Under the pieces are notes generated by a model. That model saw only the letters and a program-made list of their open reading frames with translations. It was not told where the DNA came from and ran no database searches. A DNA stretch of 64,000 bases, taken from positions 1,054,001 to 1,118,000 of the forward strand of contig QYRS01000007.1 in NCBI GenBank assembly GCA_006503535.1, read 5' to 3'. This stretch comes from Arthrinium phaeospermum (lineage: Eukaryota > Ascomycota > Sordariomycetes > Amphisphaeriales > Apiosporaceae). Each line of letters begins with the position of its first letter. The stretch's first letter is position 1. The position numbers and the translations under genes are program-made. Of this stretch, positions 4,214 to 59,844 are shown in pieces.

Positions 4214-5054
4214 ATTGGATCCGATCGTTGAGACGATCGGTCGGTGTTGGTTGTTGAAAGAAGGTGTGCTTATGGGCGTATATATCGGGAGACTTTTCTC
4301 AATTACTTTGGTTGGATCTTGCTCGTCACTTGTCGACTACCGAACTTTTTGGTAGCTATTTGTATGGTGGGGTGGAGTATCCGGAGTTTGCTCCGTTGCG
4401 ATATGGCTGCTCGTCAAGCCTCACCTTTTGTACAGGAGTAGCGCTGGTGGGTATAGCTTCTTGTCCCTTTGGCGAGTTGGCAATCGAAATGCACGGCGTC
4501 CTGGTCGCATGGACATCTATATGTAGCCAACAATGTACTGAACTGCTATGCAACAATATAGATCTGCCTATCTATCTAACAGCCACTACAAGTAAACGCA
4601 AAATATTGTTCTGAATTCCGATACCACTACGGAGTAATGCCGATTCTCATGTCCCTTACATTTCGGAAGATTACGAGTATAGGACGCCTATGAGATAGAT
4701 TTCAAGGGGCAATTCGTCATTGCATCCCAATAAATCAGTACCAACGCGATGCACACCGAATGGGTACCGGACTGGAGCAGTGGTAAGGCCAAGACGAGTG
4801 AAAGAAGCAGTAGTCGCGATATCTGCATGAGAGTCCAACAGACTAGGTAGCAACTGGGACTTTGCACATATGGCACCCTTGCAGTACTGGCAACTTCCGG
4901 TGCTGGCTCAGGACAATTGAAAGGTCCATTGCACCATCGCAAAAAAAGAGAGAAGGCATAGAAACATGAGTAGAAGGACATAATTGCCAACTTGGGACAG
5001 CTACCTACTAGCAATGCCTATAATAATTCGGAATGAACACCAAAAAAATTTATG
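4214..5054. other. Intergenic, no gene seen
   Basis: Between the two tRNA genes there are only short, uncorroborated frames. The Pol III terminator of tRNA-Ser lies at the right end. Confidence 0.55.
5042..5048 (-). terminator. Pol III T7 terminator of tRNA-Ser(CGA)
   Basis: Seven A residues on the plus strand give TTTTTTT on the tRNA strand, 7 nt after the discriminator base. This suggests the tRNA gene is still set up for Pol III transcription. Confidence 0.75.
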
Positions 5055-5203
5055 CGACGCGAGCAGGATTCGAACCTGCGCTCCCGAAGGAAATTGATAT
5101 CGCCAGTTCGAGTCAATCACGTTAACCTGTGGATAGTGGGTTAGTAAGGAGGCTAGGTGGCTATTGGATTGTAAGGTGAAACTAACCACTCCGTCATCGC
5201 GCC
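5055..5203 (-). tRNA. tRNA-Ser(CGA) with a canonical intron plus a 60-nt insertion in the D-loop
   Basis: Class II serine tRNA. The acceptor GGCGCGA pairs with TCGCGTC (one G-U), discriminator G. D-stem ACG/CGT, anticodon stem ATTGA/TCAAT, anticodon CGA at 5110-5108, variable arm TCC-TTCG-GGA, T-arm GCAGG TTCGAAT CCTGC. A canonical 8-nt intron lies at 5099-5106 after base 37. The D-loop is interrupted by 60 nt (5127-5186). Removing both inserts leaves an 81-nt tRNA with every stem paired and the usual serine D-loop GAGTGGTTAA. A-box and B-box are both intact in the DNA, and a T7 terminator follows. Either a functional gene needing two kinds of splicing, or a recently interrupted one. Confidence 0.88.
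5127..5186 (-). other. Spliceosomal-like intron inside the D-loop of tRNA-Ser(CGA)
   Basis: On the tRNA strand the insert starts GTTAGT and ends CCACAG. It holds a perfect TACTAAC branch-point box about 14 nt before the 3' AG, with a pyrimidine-rich stretch upstream of it. Its 60-nt length matches the short protein-gene introns in this window (56-65 nt). A 5-bp GGTTA direct repeat flanks it, as in a target-site duplication. The repeat makes excision ambiguous by position, but G|GTTAGT...CACAG|GTTAAC restores the exact D-loop. Splicing itself is inferred. Confidence 0.7.
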
Positions 5204-18072: not shown

Positions 18073-20919
18073 ATGTTGACACTTGACCCGGCTCTCTTCC
18101 CGAAGCTGAACACGAGGAAGGCTCTAGTCATTGTCGATGCACAAAATGACTTTTTGTCTCCCGATGGGGCACTGCCCGTGACGCTGCCCAATAACCTGGT
18201 GGGACACATATCGGACCTGGTAAAAGCGTTCAGGCCGCACGGCGACGTCATCTGGGTCCGGACCGTGTTCGAGGACAACAGGGACCCGGAGGATGAGTCC
18301 ATCTTGACGTCGGAGGCCCCCATGGTCGGAGGGCGGCGCGCGGTGGCCAGAGGACGCCGCCCGCAAGCGAACCCGCACGACCAACCGTCCTCGGACTGCC
18401 CGGAGGCTTTCCTCACTCTAGGGGGTCATGATCGCCCGGCATGCGTCCGCACAGGCACGACCGGCGCTGAGCTTCCCGATGCCCTGAAGGAGATAGCAGA
18501 GAAGAAGGACATCTCTTTTGCCAAGTCGCACTACTCTGCGTTCCGGTCCGAGGAACTGCTTCAGCGGCTGAGGATGAAGTTCGTTACCGAGATCTTCTTG
18601 TGCGGGTCCATGACCAACATTGGCATTCAGGCCTCCGCCGTCGATGCTGCGAGCCACGGCCTGGACATCACCATTGTGGAAGACTGCTGCGGCCGTCGGA
18701 GCAGCATGCGCCACAACAACGCCCTCAAGCAGATCATGAAAACGACTGGCTGCGAAGTCGTCTCCGCCAAGGAAGTAGCCGAGAAGCTAAAGCCCAAGGA
18801 GCCGGCGGCCAAGAAGGAGTCGCAAGCAGCAGCCCCCAGAATCCCCCGACGACCTGCCCCGGCCCCGGCCTCGATGCTCTCGTCTTTTGCCAACGCGTCG
18901 ATCGATGACGTACTTCCGGCCGAGGAGGATCCAAATCATGTTCGTCCTCCCAACGGAACTGTTCACACCAACACGTCGCGATTGTCTTCGGACGTCAAAG
19001 CTGGAGGGAGCAAGCCGGAGGCGATTGGTGCAGACGATCCGAGGGATGCGACGCCCGAAGGGAAGCGGGGTATGGTGCAGCCCCAAGCCGCCACCCGAAG
19101 TCGGAGCAGCGAGACGACTCTTGAGGATGCCATGTCGTCGTTGACCATGGGAACTACAAAGGGTTCGAACGGGGTCACATCAGACAAAGCCCAAAGGAAG
19201 TATCCGGATGATTTGAAAAAGGTTGCACCACAGGTAAACGACAAAAGCGAGGTTGAGAAAGAGGACAAATCCTCACTCACAAAAGAAGACAAATCCTCGG
19301 CTCCAAAAGAAAGCAAATTTTCGCCTATGGATACAGAAACTAAGGTCTCACCCTACGCCATGAAGGACTTGGCGAGCGAGGGAAATCCGGATGCCGGGGA
19401 GGCTGGTGAGAAGCGATCGCAACAAGAGACTGAATCCAGTGTGAGCGAACCTTATGGTGAAGGGGACACCCGGATCCACTACAACGTTCTCCCTGACGAC
19501 TTGGTCGCAGGCATCTTCGATAAGTTGAGAGACGAAGTTCAGTGGCTACGCATGTCGCACCAAGGAGGAGAAGTGCCCAGGCTAGTCGCCGTCCAAGGCG
19601 ACGTCGGCGAGGACGGCGAGTTCCCCATCTACCGCCACCCCGCCGACGAGTCGCCGCCCTTGCTTCCGTGGACCTTGACGGTGAAGCAGATCAAAGACGC
19701 TGTCGAGCAGAAAGTCGGACACCCGCTCAACCATGCCCTGATACAGTTCTACCGCGACGGCAACGACTACATATCCGAGCACAGCGACAAGACGCTAGAC
19801 ATTGCCAAGGGCAGCTACATTGTCAATGTCAGCCTGGGCGCCGAGCGGACGATGATTTTCCGGACTAAGCGCCAGCCAAAGGACAAAGACACGGCGGCGG
19901 CCCTTCCCGAGCCTTCGGGCAGCGGCACGAAGCGGACGGCGCAGCGCACCCAGTTGCCGCACAACTCGATGTGCCAGATGGGGCTGCAGACCAACATGCG
20001 CTGGCTGCACGCCATCCGGCAGGACAAGCGGCTGGACCGGGAGAAGACGGCCGAGGAGCTCGCATTTGGTGGTGCCCGCATCTCGCTGACGTTCAGGAAG
20101 ATAGGGACTTTCTTGGACGGCGAGAGCAAGCGCATCTGGGGCCAGGGCGCCACGGAGAAGACCCGCGAACGGGCGCGACCAGTCACCAATGGGGCAACAC
20201 CCGAGGCCATCAGGATGCTGCAGGCGTTCGGGCGCGAGAACCAGGGGTCCGACTTCGACTGGGAAGCGCACTATGGCGGCGGGTTTGACGTGCTGAATAT
20301 ATCGACGTCGCCTAGGCTGTTTACGTCGAGTGATGCGGTGGCGAACTTGCGGGTTCAGGTCATGTTGGCCGAGTACGGCATTGGGTACGCGAAGGGGAGC
20401 TTGGCTCCGGTTTCCACTGTGAAGAATACTGCTGCTGCTACCGGAGCCGTTGGAGATGAAGAAGATGAAAGGGATGGTCAGCCCATCAAATTGGTTGACA
20501 ATGACGAGGCCAAGTCGACGGTCGAGGGCGACCTGGCCATTATGCTCTACGTGAGCCAGCGGCGCGGTTTCGGCAACCCCGAGCCTTTGGTCTTTACAAG
20601 GTTCCAGCAAGCCCTGAACCTGCTGCCCAAGATGCGCCGTATTGGCAGCAGTGCGGCGCCTCTATATAAGGAAATGGACACTTGGGAGACGTACGCGGCG
20701 GAGTCGGAGTTCATTGCGGCGCCCGGTATGACCCTCGCCGACTTTGCGTTTTGGCCGGTTCTCCACCATATTAAACAGAGTGCCAAAGATAATGACGATA
20801 CCGATCCGCTTGAGAGATATACAAAACTGGAGGAGTATTATCAGCGCGTTAAGGGACGGGAATCGGTGCAGAAGGCTCTTGGGGCACCGGTCCCGCGGGC
20901 TCAGAAAAACGAATCTTAG
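18073..20919 (+). CDS. Isochorismatase-like / AlkB-like 2OG-Fe(II) oxygenase / GST-like triple fusion
   Basis: A single 948-aa exon. Residues ~15-235 are an isochorismatase-like hydrolase (ALVIVDAQNDFLSPDGALPV, FAKSHYSAF, CGSMTNIGIQASAVDAASHG). The usual nucleophilic Cys after TN is Gly, so hydrolase activity is doubtful. A charged Ser/Lys/Glu linker spans ~240-470. Residues ~475-710 are AlkB-like: NHALIQFYRDGNDYISEHSD with the HxD iron ligands, NMRWLHAIRQDKR with the distal His, and ARISLTFRKIG with the 2-oxoglutarate Arg. Residues ~740-945 resemble a GST C-terminal all-helical domain (AAPGMTLADFAFWPVL). It may repair or demethylate alkylated nucleic acids. The combination is an inference from domains only. 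Confidence 0.85.
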   Translation: MLTLDPALFPKLNTRKALVIVDAQNDFLSPDGALPVTLPNNLVGHISDLVKAFRPHGDVIWVRTVFEDNRDPEDESILTSEAPMVGGRRAVARGRRPQANPHDQPSSDCPEAFLTLGGHDRPACVRTGTTGAELPDALKEIAEKKDISFAKSHYSAFRSEELLQRLRMKFVTEIFLCGSMTNIGIQASAVDAASHGLDITIVEDCCGRRSSMRHNNALKQIMKTTGCEVVSAKEVAEKLKPKEPAAKKESQAAAPRIPRRPAPAPASMLSSFANASIDDVLPAEEDPNHVRPPNGTVHTNTSRLSSDVKAGGSKPEAIGADDPRDATPEGKRGMVQPQAATRSRSSETTLEDAMSSLTMGTTKGSNGVTSDKAQRKYPDDLKKVAPQVNDKSEVEKEDKSSLTKEDKSSAPKESKFSPMDTETKVSPYAMKDLASEGNPDAGEAGEKRSQQETESSVSEPYGEGDTRIHYNVLPDDLVAGIFDKLRDEVQWLRMSHQGGEVPRLVAVQGDVGEDGEFPIYRHPADESPPLLPWTLTVKQIKDAVEQKVGHPLNHALIQFYRDGNDYISEHSDKTLDIAKGSYIVNVSLGAERTMIFRTKRQPKDKDTAAALPEPSGSGTKRTAQRTQLPHNSMCQMGLQTNMRWLHAIRQDKRLDREKTAEELAFGGARISLTFRKIGTFLDGESKRIWGQGATEKTRERARPVTNGATPEAIRMLQAFGRENQGSDFDWEAHYGGGFDVLNISTSPRLFTSSDAVANLRVQVMLAEYGIGYAKGSLAPVSTVKNTAAATGAVGDEEDERDGQPIKLVDNDEAKSTVEGDLAIMLYVSQRRGFGNPEPLVFTRFQQALNLLPKMRRIGSSAAPLYKEMDTWETYAAESEFIAAPGMTLADFAFWPVLHHIKQSAKDNDDTDPLERYTKLEEYYQRVKGRESVQKALGAPVPRAQKNES

Positions 20920-37412: not shown

Positions 37413-37514
37413 CGACATCCGCAGGATTTGAACCTACGCGACCGAAGTCATGAGATGGCTGAACCTCGCACTGAGGATTCAAGTCTCACCCATTAACCAC
37501 TCTGGCAGGATGTC
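37413..37514 (-). tRNA. tRNA-Ser(TGA) with a 21-nt intron
   Basis: Acceptor GACATCC/GGATGTC fully paired, discriminator G. D-stem CCA/TGG, anticodon stem TGAGA/TCTCA with anticodon TGA, variable arm GAC-TTCG-GTC, T-arm GTAGG TTCAAAT CCTGC. The canonical intron is 37457-37477; the mature tRNA is 81 nt. Unlike tRNA-Ser(CGA) at 5 kb, its D-loop is uninterrupted (GAGTGGTTAA), so it is a useful reference for that gene. Confidence 0.93.
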
Positions 37515-52434: not shown

Positions 52435-54644
52435 ATGGTGCTGGAACAGTACACCTACATCTACGTCATCGGCACTTTCTTTGCCTTGCTGGACGCCTAC
52501 AACAACGGCGCAAGTATGTACTACCATCCTGCGCTTTATATCTAACATATGGTTGCATATAACTACAATGAGATGGGCTGACTAAGAGGAACCAGACGAC
52601 GTGGCCAACGCGTGGGCGACCAGCGTCTCGTCGCGATCCATCACCTACCGCCAGGCCATCGTCTTCGCCTTCATCTTCGAGATCCTCGGCGCCGTGGCCG
52701 TCGGCGCGCGCACGGCCGACACCATCAAGAACGGCATCATCCCGGCGTCGGCGTTCCGGGACGATGCCGGCGTGCAGATGCTGGCCTTCACGTGCGCTCT
52801 TGCGGGCGCCTCCCTGTAAGTCATTGGCCGGGCGGGGGGACAAGACCGTGTCCATAACTATTAGCTCCCGATCATCCATCATGGCTAATGACGATTTGGT
52901 AATAGTTGGGTCATGTGGTGCTCGCGGCACTCCGCCCACGTCTCCTCTACGTATTCGCTGGTCTCGGCTGTGGCGGGAGTCGGCGTCGCTGTAGCTGGTC
53001 CGAGTGAGGTCCAATGGGGATGGAACGGAGGCAAAGGTGCGTCCAATCACAAGCCTGTCCCATTATATGAGTTTACCCCCTTTACTAATATTCCAATACC
53101 CTCAGGCCTCGGCGCCATCTTCGCCGGCCTAGCCATGGCCCCCTTCATCTCGGCCTGCTTCGGCGCCCTCATGTTCGGCCTGATCAAGTTCGTGGTGCAC
53201 ATGCGGCGCAACCCGGTCCCCTGGGCCGTCTACAGCGCGCCGCTCTGGTTCCTGATCGCCGGCACCATCTGCACCCTGTCCATCGTGTACAAGGGCTCGC
53301 CCAACCTGCAGCTCGACAAGAAGCCGCCCGCCTTCATCGCCGCCGTCACCCTCGGCGCCGGCTTCGGCGTCTGTTTGTTGTCCGTCCTCTTCTTCGTCCC
53401 CTACGTCCACGCCCTCGTCATCAAGCGCGACGCCAGCGTGCGAACCTGGATGTTCGTCCAGGGCCCCCTCCTCTTCAAGCGGGCGGCCGTCGCGCCGTCG
53501 GCGCAGGCCGTGGCGCCCAAGTATGCCGTCGTGCAGGAGGGCGGGGGTCAGGGCGTCACTTTTTCCGCCAGCGGCGCCCCGGTGCTTCCGCCCATCTCCA
53601 TCGACCGCGACGACAGCATCAACAACAACAGCGAGAAGGAGAAGGCCGTGGAGATCCACACCCAGTACAGCTACAAAGAGCAAGTGGCCCAGGCCGAGGC
53701 CCGGCTCCACGCCCGGCTCCGGGAGGGACGCGGGCCCATGGGCTGGGCGATGCGGTTCCTGCACGAGCACCCCATGGGCGAGGGCCGCATCTACGAAACC
53801 CACAACATGAAGAACTTCCTCCTGCGCATCCAGGCCATGGTTGTCGTTGCTCTGCTGTACGGGTCCCACTACGACATCCACGCCGCGCAGGTCGGCATCG
53901 GCGGCACCCCCGAGGGCCGGCGCATGGACCGCGTCTACGCCCACGCGCCCAAGTACCCCGACGAGGTCGAGCACACGTATTCGTTTATTCAGGTGAGCAA
54001 TACTGCATACAGTCTAAAGGCTTTTTTATAAAGCGGAAATGGGATGAAAACTAATCCAAGTAAAGGTTCTCACCGCTTGCACTGCATCCTTTGCTCATGG
54101 TGCCAACGACGTCGGCAACGCTGTCGGACCCTGGGCGGCCATCTACCAGGCGTGGTCCACCGGCAGTGCGTCGTCTACCAAGGCGCCCGTCGACACCTGG
54201 CAGCTCGCCGTCGCCGCGCTGACCATTTGCATCGGTCTCGCGACGTACGGGTACAACATCATGAAAGGTTAGTGGCTTCCCCCTTTTCCCCTTTCTCTTA
54301 GTCTCCCTCGAATCCCTTTGATTGCATACTGACACATGCCCGCCACAGTCATGGGCAACAAGATCACGTACCACTCGCCCAGCCGCGGCTGCTCGATGGA
54401 GATGGGCGCCGCCGTCACCATCCTCGTCTTCTCCCAGTACTCGCTGCCCGTCTCGACGTCCATGTGCATCACCGGCGCCACCGTCGGCGTCGGCCTGATG
54501 AACGGCACCGCCAAGGCGGTCAACTGGCAGCGCATCGCCCTGCTGATGATCTCCTGGATCGCCACCATCCCCATCGCCGGCTCCATTGCGGGGGTGATTA
54601 TGGGGGTTGTGCTGAATGCCCCCCACTTCCCTACCGCGGGCTGA
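52435..54644 (+). CDS. pho-4: Na+/phosphate symporter, PHO-4/Pho89 family
   Basis: Six exons, 52435-52513, 52596-52815, 52906-53036, 53106-53992, 54066-54267 and 54349-54644; 604 aa. The first exon ends inside the family signature GANDVANAWATSVSSRS. The second signature, SFAHGANDVGNAVGPWAAIY, is in exon 5. Other family marks are WVMWCSRHSAHVSSTYSLVS and TGATVGVGLMNGTA. There are multiple membrane helices with a long cytosolic loop (~335-430, IDRDDSINNNSEKEKAVEI). It imports phosphate with sodium at the plasma membrane. In Neurospora the gene is repressed by phosphate; a CACGTGGGG motif upstream fits that. All splice phases check. Confidence 0.93.
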
Positions 54645-57477: not shown

Positions 57478-59844
57478 CTACACAATAATAAACTCCTCGG
57501 TCTTATCTGCCAGCTCAGCTGCGCTCAACATGCTGATTGCCTCACCATCCATCCTCCCATACACGTAAGCCTCGCCAATAAACTCGTAGAAGTCGTTGCG
57601 CGGCCTCAAGATACAAGGCACGCTGCAGCCGAAAAGTATGCAGATCCTGTCACCGACCTGCGTCTCGGGCGGGCCGAGGCCGAACAGCGGCTCGAGGGAG
57701 CCGCCCGACCCGGGGCGGCCGACGGGGGCGCCCTCGAGGAACTTGCGGTTCCAGGTGACGGCCTGGACCCGCTTCAGGTACTCGATGAGGATCTCCGGGA
57801 GCTTCGGGTGCGAGACCCCCTGCTCCAGCAGATCGCTCGTCCCGATGTGGCCGTTGTTGTCGGCGAGGGCCATGCAGTGGAGGGCGGCCCGGTGGTACCA
57901 GGGCGGCGTGTTCTTGCCGTCGGCGTCCCGGTCCGCGACCATGGTGCGCCAGAGCCGCTCCGGCACCTTTCCCGCGGGCTCTTGCTCGAAGAAGTTCCAG
58001 CCGCCCTTCTCGAGGCACTCCCGCGTGATGACGCCCATCGATACGGGGCCGCAGACCCAGCGGAGGACGTCGATCACGATCCCCTTGACATGAAGCCGAT
58101 GGGCGGGGGTGCCCCTGCCGACCGGGAAATGGTTTTTGGTGGGGGTCCCAGATACCTGGCTGTCGGCGCCGAACGTCGTGGGTGCCGAGCTGACACGGCT
58201 TTGCAGAGGCTCGATGGGCTGCCTCCACCTTATCCCAAAACGAACGCTGGGCGCCTTCCCGTGACAGGCGTTGTAACAGCTTCTCCCCGCCTTGCCGACA
58301 AAGCTGTCCCCGTTGACGCGGCCGTTGAAGCCCTGCTCCTGGGTGCCCCACGGGGACTTCTGGATGGTCTGTATCCACGACGGCAGCGTCACCAAGGCCG
58401 TCGGGTTCTTGCGGCCTCCCTCCGTCTTCCTTTCGGGGGTGGCCCACTGTCGACAGATGACGTCCAACGAGCCCGTGGACAGGACGACCCATTCCAGGAA
58501 GTCGGTATACACCTTGAGGATGTTACGCCCGTAGTTGGGCTTGGGCGGCCCGACCGTGTCCACCCTTTGCCCGGTGGGCAACATGGATTCCCGGGCAATG
58601 TTGAGGAGCGCGAAGATGCTGTCGCGCGGGTCGCCCGACTCGAAGGGGGTGAGGTCGCAGACCAACGCCTCCAGGCTGAAGACGGGCTCGAACACGTCCC
58701 CGTCCACGCTCTTGCGGAACGTGTTGGTGATGGCCTCGACCAGGATCTTGGCGCCGAGCGGCTGCAGGTCGTTGAGGTACTTGTAGTTGCGGTAGATCTT
58801 GTCGTTTTCCGACTGCCGGAACAGCGCGCGGATCCGGTCCGAGTTGTACGCAAACAGGCCGATGGCGTCGGCAAAGTCGGCCCAGGCGATGAAGTGCGTG
58901 CCGCAGTGCACCGTCGCCTCCCGGGCCAGCGCCAGCTCCTGGATGACCCAGCGCCGCGAGAACCAGCTGCACCGCATCAGATCCAGCAAGTCGCTCCAGC
59001 GGTTCGTGAGCCTCTCGCTCAGATAGAACTCGAAGTTCTTCAAGTCGTCGACGATCTTCTGGACGAAGTCCATGGCGGCGTAGAAGTCTTCGCTCCTGTC
59101 TCCGTTGGCGTCGCCCTTTCCGTCGCCGAGCCAGATGCAGACGTTCAGGGCCTTGCGGTAAATGTGTTTCATCTTGGCAATCTGCGCCGGCTTTTCGAAC
59201 AACTCGTCGGATTGGTTGATGCACACGGCATCGACCCACAGGACCGTGACGTGCGTCTTGTCGCGCAGGGATCGGAGGGCCTTGTCCAGATTGGGGCGGA
59301 TGTAGAACCGCGTACCCTTTATGGCGTCGTCGACGTGCTCCATCAGCCGCACCGCGTCCAGGAAGTCGAGCTTCGGCACCTTTTGAGGCGCCGCAAAGTA
59401 GACCGGTCTGTCGGCCGGGCCCGGTCCCCAATGATAGGAAAGCGCCTCGTATGCCTGCTGCGATGGCTGCGGACCGACATCTTCGTCCATGTGTGTTCTC
59501 ATGGTCACGTGTAGATCGTCCTTGTAGTTTTCCGCGGGGTTGATGTAGAGAAGCCGCATCTGGTTGTGTTGGATTGGCGTGTACTCGTAGAGCAGCCCGT
59601 GTCTGTTCAGCGTGTTGTAGCGCTGGGCCCCCTTGAGGAACATCTTCTTGACTTCCTCCCGGCTCATGGAGCTCCGGGGTTGCTTATCCCAGAAACCGAT
59701 CCGTTCCTGTGGGACTCGGACCGGTCGGGTTCGCCTTGGGACATCTACGCGGCGGGCAGGTCGAATTGGAGCTTGTACTTCGGTGTTCCCCCCATTTTGA
59801 ACGCCATCTCCGTTTTGGACCTGCGCAGTCTGCGACCTCTTCAT
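57478..59844 (-). CDS. Heterokaryon-incompatibility (HET) domain protein
   Basis: 788 aa in one exon. The HET domain spans ~130-330 with its marks: YEALSYHWGPG, VLWVDAVCINQSDELFEKPA, KMKHIYRKALNVCIWLGDG and SRRWVIQELALAREATVHCG. The N-terminus is basic and Arg/Pro-rich. The C-terminal ~400 residues (DSIFALLNIA, GRNILKVYTDFLEWVVLSTG) match the usual HET tail. HET proteins trigger cell death when unlike strains fuse, and the domain has a TIR-like fold. It lies head-to-head, 1 kb from an NLR gene on the other strand. Confidence 0.92.
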   Translation of the reverse strand: MKRSQTAQVQNGDGVQNGGNTEVQAPIRPARRVDVPRRTRPVRVPQERIGFWDKQPRSSMSREEVKKMFLKGAQRYNTLNRHGLLYEYTPIQHNQMRLLYINPAENYKDDLHVTMRTHMDEDVGPQPSQQAYEALSYHWGPGPADRPVYFAAPQKVPKLDFLDAVRLMEHVDDAIKGTRFYIRPNLDKALRSLRDKTHVTVLWVDAVCINQSDELFEKPAQIAKMKHIYRKALNVCIWLGDGKGDANGDRSEDFYAAMDFVQKIVDDLKNFEFYLSERLTNRWSDLLDLMRCSWFSRRWVIQELALAREATVHCGTHFIAWADFADAIGLFAYNSDRIRALFRQSENDKIYRNYKYLNDLQPLGAKILVEAITNTFRKSVDGDVFEPVFSLEALVCDLTPFESGDPRDSIFALLNIARESMLPTGQRVDTVGPPKPNYGRNILKVYTDFLEWVVLSTGSLDVICRQWATPERKTEGGRKNPTALVTLPSWIQTIQKSPWGTQEQGFNGRVNGDSFVGKAGRSCYNACHGKAPSVRFGIRWRQPIEPLQSRVSSAPTTFGADSQVSGTPTKNHFPVGRGTPAHRLHVKGIVIDVLRWVCGPVSMGVITRECLEKGGWNFFEQEPAGKVPERLWRTMVADRDADGKNTPPWYHRAALHCMALADNNGHIGTSDLLEQGVSHPKLPEILIEYLKRVQAVTWNRKFLEGAPVGRPGSGGSLEPLFGLGPPETQVGDRICILFGCSVPCILRPRNDFYEFIGEAYVYGRMDGEAISMLSAAELADKTEEFIIV

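What the first reader, a model, noticed from the sequence alone, without database searches (positions are those of the whole stretch)
5055..5203. Nuclear tRNA-Ser(CGA) gene with a spliceosomal-type intron in the D-loop
The tRNA is perfect in every stem once two inserts are removed: a normal 8-nt intron after base 37 and a 60-nt insert in the D-loop. The second begins GTTAGT, has a perfect TACTAAC box about 14 nt before CACAG, and is as long as local mRNA introns. A- and B-boxes and a T7 terminator are intact. Eukaryotic tRNA introns are normally only at 37/38 and removed by the tRNA endonuclease. mRNA-type introns in Pol III genes are known for U6 in some fungi, but I know of none in a fungal tRNA. 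If functional, this transcript uses both splicing systems.
Basis: partly seen in the sequence, partly recalled or inferred. Interest (0 to 1): 0.9.

Follow-up and report, generated by a model that had tools for sequence, protein, structure and literature searches.

The report
Fungal tRNA genes with mRNA-type introns
In a plant-associated mould, three copies of a serine transfer-RNA gene each carry in the D-loop an intron with the marks of messenger-RNA introns, so this tRNA is probably spliced by two different cellular machines.

Summary
The minus-strand gene 5203-5055 is a tRNA-Ser(CGA) with an 8-nt intron at 37/38 and a 60-nt D-loop insert (5186-5127: GTTAGT...TACTAAC...CACAG). The genome (Apiospora or a close relative) holds two more such genes at unrelated sites. 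All 81 mature positions are identical in the three, while the inserts differ at 15-32% of aligned sites plus indels; yet each keeps GTNNGT, CTAAC 13 nt before the exon, and YAG. The D-loop predicted after splicing occurs uninterrupted in 5 of 5 tRNA-Ser(GCU) genes read here. ARAGORN finds tRNA-Ser(CGA) only when the D-loop insert is removed (3 of 3). The inserts resemble likely mRNA introns of the window, and this genome's U6 gene has an intron with the same signals. Best reading: a spliceosomal intron in functional nuclear tRNA genes, whose transcripts need both the spliceosome and the tRNA endonuclease/ligase. Against: a fourth tRNA-Ser(CGA) gene lacks the insert; the unspliced C10 copy is missed by Rfam; no RNA data and no related genome could be examined. 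I saw no precedent in ten open-access literature searches.

The parts
5055..5203 (-). tRNA-Ser(CGA) gene, unspliced, 149 nt
   Evidence: Rfam RF00005 35.1 bits; ARAGORN Ser(cga) only after removal of the D-loop insert
5187..5203 (-). Exon 1 (17 nt), acceptor 5' strand to D-loop G18 (numbering recalled)
   Evidence: Identical in three paralogues
5127..5186 (-). D-loop insert, 60 nt, proposed spliceosomal intron
   Evidence: GTTAGT...TACTAAC...CACAG; paralogues keep the signals
5181..5186 (-). Donor GTTAGT
   Evidence: Sequence; GTTAGT in 2 of 14 candidate mRNA introns of the window
5140..5146 (-). Branch box TACTAAC
   Evidence: Sequence; CTAAC core kept in 3 of 3 copies
5127..5129 (-). Acceptor CAG
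   Evidence: YAG in 3 of 3 copies
5107..5126 (-). Exon 2 (20 nt) with anticodon CGA at 5110-5108
   Evidence: Identical in three paralogues
5099..5106 (-). Ordinary 8-nt intron at 37/38
   Evidence: ARAGORN i(38,8); differs at 4 of 8 sites in the C7b copy
5055..5098 (-). Exon 3 (44 nt), with B-box GGTTCGAATCC at 5076-5066
   Evidence: Identical in three paralogues
5186..5196 (-). A-box TGACGGAGTGG; its last G is the first base of the insert
   Evidence: Sequence; A-box consensus recalled
5042..5048 (-). T7 run, likely Pol III terminator
   Evidence: Sequence; the other two copies have T6 runs

Best explanation
The D-loop insert is a spliceosomal (U2-type) intron between the two D-loop guanines of a functional nuclear tRNA-Ser(CGA) gene, one of three such genes. 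Shown by sequence: anatomy, paralogues, unchanged exons with diverged inserts, kept splice signals, exact agreement of the predicted spliced D-loop with uninterrupted Ser(GCU) genes. Inferred: Pol III transcribes the gene from its A- and B-boxes; the spliceosome removes the 60-nt intron as a lariat in the nucleus, which completes the D-arm; the tRNA endonuclease and ligase remove the 8-nt intron at 37/38. The intron was probably gained once, before the gene was copied as DNA to three sites.
For: Three paralogues: 81 of 81 exon positions identical, D introns differing at 9/59, 13/56 and 18/56 aligned sites with 2, 7 and 7 gap columns; similarity ends within 14 nt of the gene in comparisons with about 1.5 kb on each side. 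GTNNGT, CTAAC at 13 nt and YAG in 3 of 3. The joined D-loop CGGAGTGGTTAACG stands uninterrupted in 5 of 5 Ser(GCU) genes. ARAGORN: no gene in any of three modes for the 3 full genes; Ser(cga) with an 8-nt intron in 3 of 3 in both intron modes once the D insert is removed. Window scan: 14 intron candidates with the same signals, 0 in the reversed control. U6 gene with GTAAGT...TACTAAC...CAG intron. Fusarium introns: median 57 nt, CTRAY 91% (PMC5677156).
Against: No RNA evidence. A fourth tRNA-Ser(CGA) gene without the insert exists. The unspliced C10 copy has no Rfam hit even at E 0.1. Donor GTTAGT is uncommon in Fusarium (T at +3 in 6%), and the C10 branch box is ATCTAAC rather than TACTAAC. 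The first exon is only 17 nt plus leader and uncapped, an unusual substrate (recalled). No other tRNA with such an intron was seen in a partial survey.
Confidence: 0.86

Rival explanations
1. The insert is an ectopic tRNA-type intron cut by the tRNA splicing endonuclease, as in Cyanidioschyzon merolae or nucleomorph tRNAs.
For: D-arm introns removed without a spliceosome are known in algae (PMC4090602, section 5). At a register one base off, 3 of 4 central-helix pairs form in all three copies.
Against: No register gives a full bulge-helix-bulge, though the same crude test also fails on the ordinary 37/38 intron and so weighs little. Conserved GTNNGT, CTAAC and YAG have no role in this pathway.
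Confidence: 0.05
2. The three genes are dead or silent copies of a tRNA gene that once took up an insert; the insert-free fourth gene supplies tRNA-Ser(CGA).
For: An insert-free Ser(CGA) gene exists; insertions in D or T arms of eukaryotic tRNA genes are mostly taken for pseudogenes (PMC4090602).
Against: 81 of 81 exon positions unchanged in three dispersed genes while introns and flanks diverged; with the observed intron divergence per site, zero changes in 81 sites has probability 1.5e-6 or less per pair (assumes equal neutral rates). T6-T7 runs follow all three.
Confidence: 0.06
3. The splice-like signals are a coincidence in a D-loop insert that does something else, such as a processed fragment or an unspliced tRNA-like RNA.
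For: CTAAC alone near the end is common in shuffles (1546 of 20,000 for the window copy).
Against: The full signature is met by 17, 4 and 10 of 20,000 shuffles, and by 3 of 3 diverged copies; removing exactly GT...AG gives the D-loop of the Ser(GCU) genes.
Confidence: 0.03

Closest known systems
mRNA-type intron of U6 snRNA genes in fungi (S. pombe; PMC8917221, passages)
   Same: Spliceosomal intron in a Pol III transcript; this genome's own U6 gene has one, with B-box-like GTTCAAATCC inside it
   Different: Host is a spliceosomal RNA, not a tRNA; no second splicing system is needed; here the Pol III boxes flank the intron instead of lying in it
Introns of fungal U3 snoRNA genes (PMC5832005, passages and section 3.2)
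   Same: GT-AG introns with RCTRAC branch sites in a small structured RNA, in Sordariomycetes among others
   Different: snoRNA, not tRNA; that paper (2017) names U3 and U6 as the only small structured RNAs known to be often interrupted by an intron
Ectopic D-arm introns of C. merolae and nucleomorph tRNAs (PMC4090602, PMC3978253)
   Same: Intron in the D-arm, several introns in one tRNA
   Different: There bulge-helix-bulge motifs or unknown means, 3-24 nt in Guillardia theta; here 59-60 nt with splice signals and branch box
Spliceosomal introns in nuclear rDNA of lichen-forming ascomycetes (recalled, no call)
   Same: Spliceosomal introns in a gene not transcribed by Pol II
   Different: Pol I rRNA, not Pol III tRNA
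Canonical eukaryotic tRNA intron at 37/38
   Same: The 8-nt intron in the same gene is of this kind
   Different: The D-loop insert is at another place and has splice-site motifs

Membership tests
Spliceosomal (U2-type) intron | GT...AG ends with fungal donor consensus | tested here: met
   GTTAGT, GTTAGT, GTATGT; CAG, TAG, TAG
Spliceosomal (U2-type) intron | Branch site CTRAY at fungal distance from the 3' end | tested here: met
   CTAAC 13 nt from the exon in 3 of 3 copies; window candidates 5-22 nt, the scan allowing 5-25
Spliceosomal (U2-type) intron | Length typical of the host's introns | tested here: met
[quoted passage not shown]
   No RNA data
Functional nuclear tRNA gene | Cloverleaf after splicing, isotype and anticodon | tested here: met
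   ARAGORN Ser(cga) in 3 of 3; the MFE fold has all arms, the D-stem in another register than Rfam's
Functional nuclear tRNA gene | Exons under purifying selection | tested here: met
   81 of 81 identical against 15-32% intron divergence
Functional nuclear tRNA gene | Transcribed by Pol III and aminoacylated | not testable with these tools
   A- and B-box and T-run present only as sequence
Archaeal-type / C. merolae ectopic tRNA intron | Bulge-helix-bulge at the splice sites | tested here: inconclusive
   No full motif in any register, but the same test fails on the ordinary 37/38 intron
Canonical tRNA intron | Position 37/38 | tested here: not met
   The 60-nt insert is in the D-loop; the separate 8-nt intron meets it

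The most novel reading that the evidence does not exclude
A nuclear tRNA family whose maturation must pass through both RNA-splicing machines: the spliceosome removes a D-loop intron from a Pol III pre-tRNA, and the tRNA endonuclease and ligase remove the anticodon-loop intron. Supply of this UCG-reading tRNA would then depend on spliceosome activity.
Probability: 0.8. Interest if true: 0.92.

Novelty: new variant of a known kind. Interest (0 to 1): 0.87.

Why it matters
Standard accounts say that tRNA introns are removed by protein enzymes without the spliceosome (a 2026 review says so, PMC13149111, passages). A working tRNA with a spliceosomal intron would break that rule, show that such introns can enter one of the most constrained classes of Pol III genes, and give a natural test of splicing on an uncapped, strongly folded RNA with a very short first exon. 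It would also mean that tRNA finders can miss such genes: ARAGORN misses all three unspliced forms and Rfam misses one of three.

Tried and rejected
Considered and set aside: chance (and three copies); assembly error (three independent loci); a repeated mobile intron (the search with the whole gene finds the insert in three places only; the 14 other hits match the 3' part and read as ordinary Ser genes with uninterrupted D-loops; that search skips very common words).

Survey limits. The Rfam tRNA search scored 63 of 1391 candidates and does not list the window copy. Of 396 T-arm motif matches (control 223) only 100 were listed; I chose 60 stretches among them; 15 hold an Rfam tRNA and none of these shows such an insert (where reverse-strand entries among L001-L030 were printed unturned; 15 of the surveyed set were turned). 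Pattern AGTGGTNNGT..CTAAC: 45 matches, control 74; three are the tRNA genes, 30 of 30 fetched others have no T-arm within 260 nt, 12 were judged only from the printed letters. Pattern CTAAC..AG..T-arm with 15-45 nt spacing: 11 matches, control 22; judged by eye only; this range excludes the three known genes, whose spacing is 51. The range 46-76 did not complete. So 'only three such genes' is not shown.

Relatives: a tRNA pattern in viral contigs gave 0 and in prokaryote contigs 3, which I did not look into. No related fungal genome was available. Of the 7 CGA-loop matches, three are not the Ser genes and give no Rfam hit at E 0.1. The ARAGORN scan of the 60 stretches was replaced by Rfam; that script stopped on an error, its second part was redone.

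Full report
The gene. On the minus strand, 5203-5055, Rfam finds a tRNA at 35.1 bits with extra bases in the D-loop and the anticodon loop. By the letters: exon 1 of 17 nt; a 60-nt insert GTTAGT...TACTAAC...CACAG; 20 nt ending in anticodon CGA and A37; an 8-nt insert; 44 nt; then a T7 run. ARAGORN finds no gene in the full sequence in any of three modes. With both inserts removed it reports Ser(cga) in 3 of 3. With only the 8-nt insert removed it finds nothing in two copies and a spurious Val in one. The free-energy fold of the 81-nt form shows all arms, the D-stem in another register than in the Rfam alignment.

Organism. The ORF at 18073-20919 is 93% identical to an Apiospora marii protein and the phosphate transporter piece at 52913-54031 is 87% identical to one of that species. 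The genome (48.4 Mb, 19 contigs) is therefore from Apiospora or near it (Sordariomycetes).

Paralogues. The gene as DNA query finds 17 places. Three carry the D-loop insert: the window gene, C10:2679220-2679383 (L062) and C7:2022101-2022261 (L063). The other 14 match the 3' part only; read one by one they are 7 Ser(AGA), 5 Ser(GCU), 1 Ser(UGA) and 1 Ser(CGA) gene, all with uninterrupted D-loops. That Ser(CGA) gene (L048, C7:2480600-2481000) looks like a Ser(AGA) gene with a changed anticodon and has only an intron in the anticodon loop. A CGA-loop pattern finds 7 places, the four Ser(CGA) genes and three others without Rfam hit.

Unspliced Rfam scores: window 35.1, C7b 35.2, insert-free L048 49.5; the C10 copy is not found, even at E 0.1. 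This tells against easy detection, not against the reading, since its 81 exon bases are the same as in the other two.

Constraint. 81 of 81 exon positions are identical in the three genes. The D introns differ at 9/59, 13/56 and 18/56 aligned sites, with 2, 7 and 7 gap columns. The 8-nt intron differs at 4 of 8 sites in C7b. With about 1.5 kb on each side, similarity stops within 14 nt of the gene. In the inserts, the donor GTNNGT, the core CTAAC, its 13-nt distance and YAG are kept; 20 of the last 24 alignment columns are identical, against 16 of the first 40. Gene conversion of whole genes would have evened out the introns too, so selection on the exons is the simpler cause.

The junction. 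Joining at GT...AG gives the D-loop CGGAGTGGTTAACG. That string is absent from the three genomic loci (about 3 kb each) and present uninterrupted in 5 of 5 Ser(GCU) genes. So the prediction meets a standing D-loop of the same genome, base for base.

Host introns. A scan of the window for GTNNGT..CTRAC..YAG stretches of 45-109 nt whose removal joins long open frames gives 14, and 0 in the reversed sequence. Two of 14 start GTTAGT. The candidate 52514-52595 agrees to within two bases with the gap between aligned blocks of three Apiospora orthologues; the one at 54268-54348 (81 nt) fits the length skipped by two of the three orthologues, while the third reads through (my arithmetic). In Fusarium (same class) the median is 57 nt, CTRAY 91%, YAG|R 94%, and T at +3 is uncommon at 6% (PMC5677156, passages and one section).

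U6. The best U6 match (C4:2470400-2470560) is split after ACAGAGAAGAT by GTAAGT...TACTAACTTCCACACAG, with GTTCAAATCC inside and TATA at -31. In fission yeast U6 is a Pol III transcript with an intron removed by the spliceosome (PMC8917221, passages). A spliceosome acting on Pol III RNA is thus likely in this fungus as well.

Which machine. No register gives a full bulge-helix-bulge; one register has 3 of 4 central pairs in all three copies; the same test also fails on the ordinary intron, so it decides little. The case for the spliceosome rests on the kept signals. Pol III transcription, lariat formation and the order of the two splicing steps are inferred.

Literature. Ten searches of the open-access library listed no title or abstract that I saw reporting a spliceosomal intron in a nuclear tRNA gene. 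I read passages or sections of eight papers, none whole: PMC4090602, PMC5677156, PMC8450103, PMC3978253, PMC5832005, PMC8917221, PMC13149111, PMC11782384. PMC5832005 (2017) names U3 and U6 as the only small structured RNAs known to be often interrupted. PMC4090602 says D- or T-arm insertions in eukaryotic tRNAs are mostly taken for pseudogenes, with algal exceptions. In PMC8450103 the shown passages treat noncanonical introns as archaeal. [quoted passage not shown] Preprints and most subscription papers were not searchable, so priority is not proven.

Verdict. Open: RNA proof, spread among relatives, and whether more such tRNA genes exist in this genome.

Noticed in passing
L068 (G000:C4:2470400-2470560): U6 snRNA gene with an mRNA-type intron of 56 nt or so that holds a B-box-like GTTCAAATCC, as described for fission yeast (the fission yeast B-box is recalled).
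   Followed up: partly
L069 (G000:C11:298368-298480): A second U6-like match without intron, with changes in the ACAGAGA-AGAT region; perhaps a pseudogene.
   Followed up: no
window 37413-37514 (minus): tRNA-Ser, anticodon UGA by eye, with a longer intron in the anticodon loop and an uninterrupted D-loop.
   Followed up: no
L048 (G000:C7:2480600-2481000): A Ser(CGA) gene that looks like a Ser(AGA) gene with a one-base anticodon change.
   Followed up: partly
window 57478-59844 (minus): HET-domain (heterokaryon incompatibility) protein, Pfam PF06985.
   Followed up: no
window 18073-20919: Intronless 948-aa protein whose relatives carry isochorismatase (PF00857), AlkB-like 2OG dioxygenase (PF13532) and GST C-terminal domains.
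   Followed up: no
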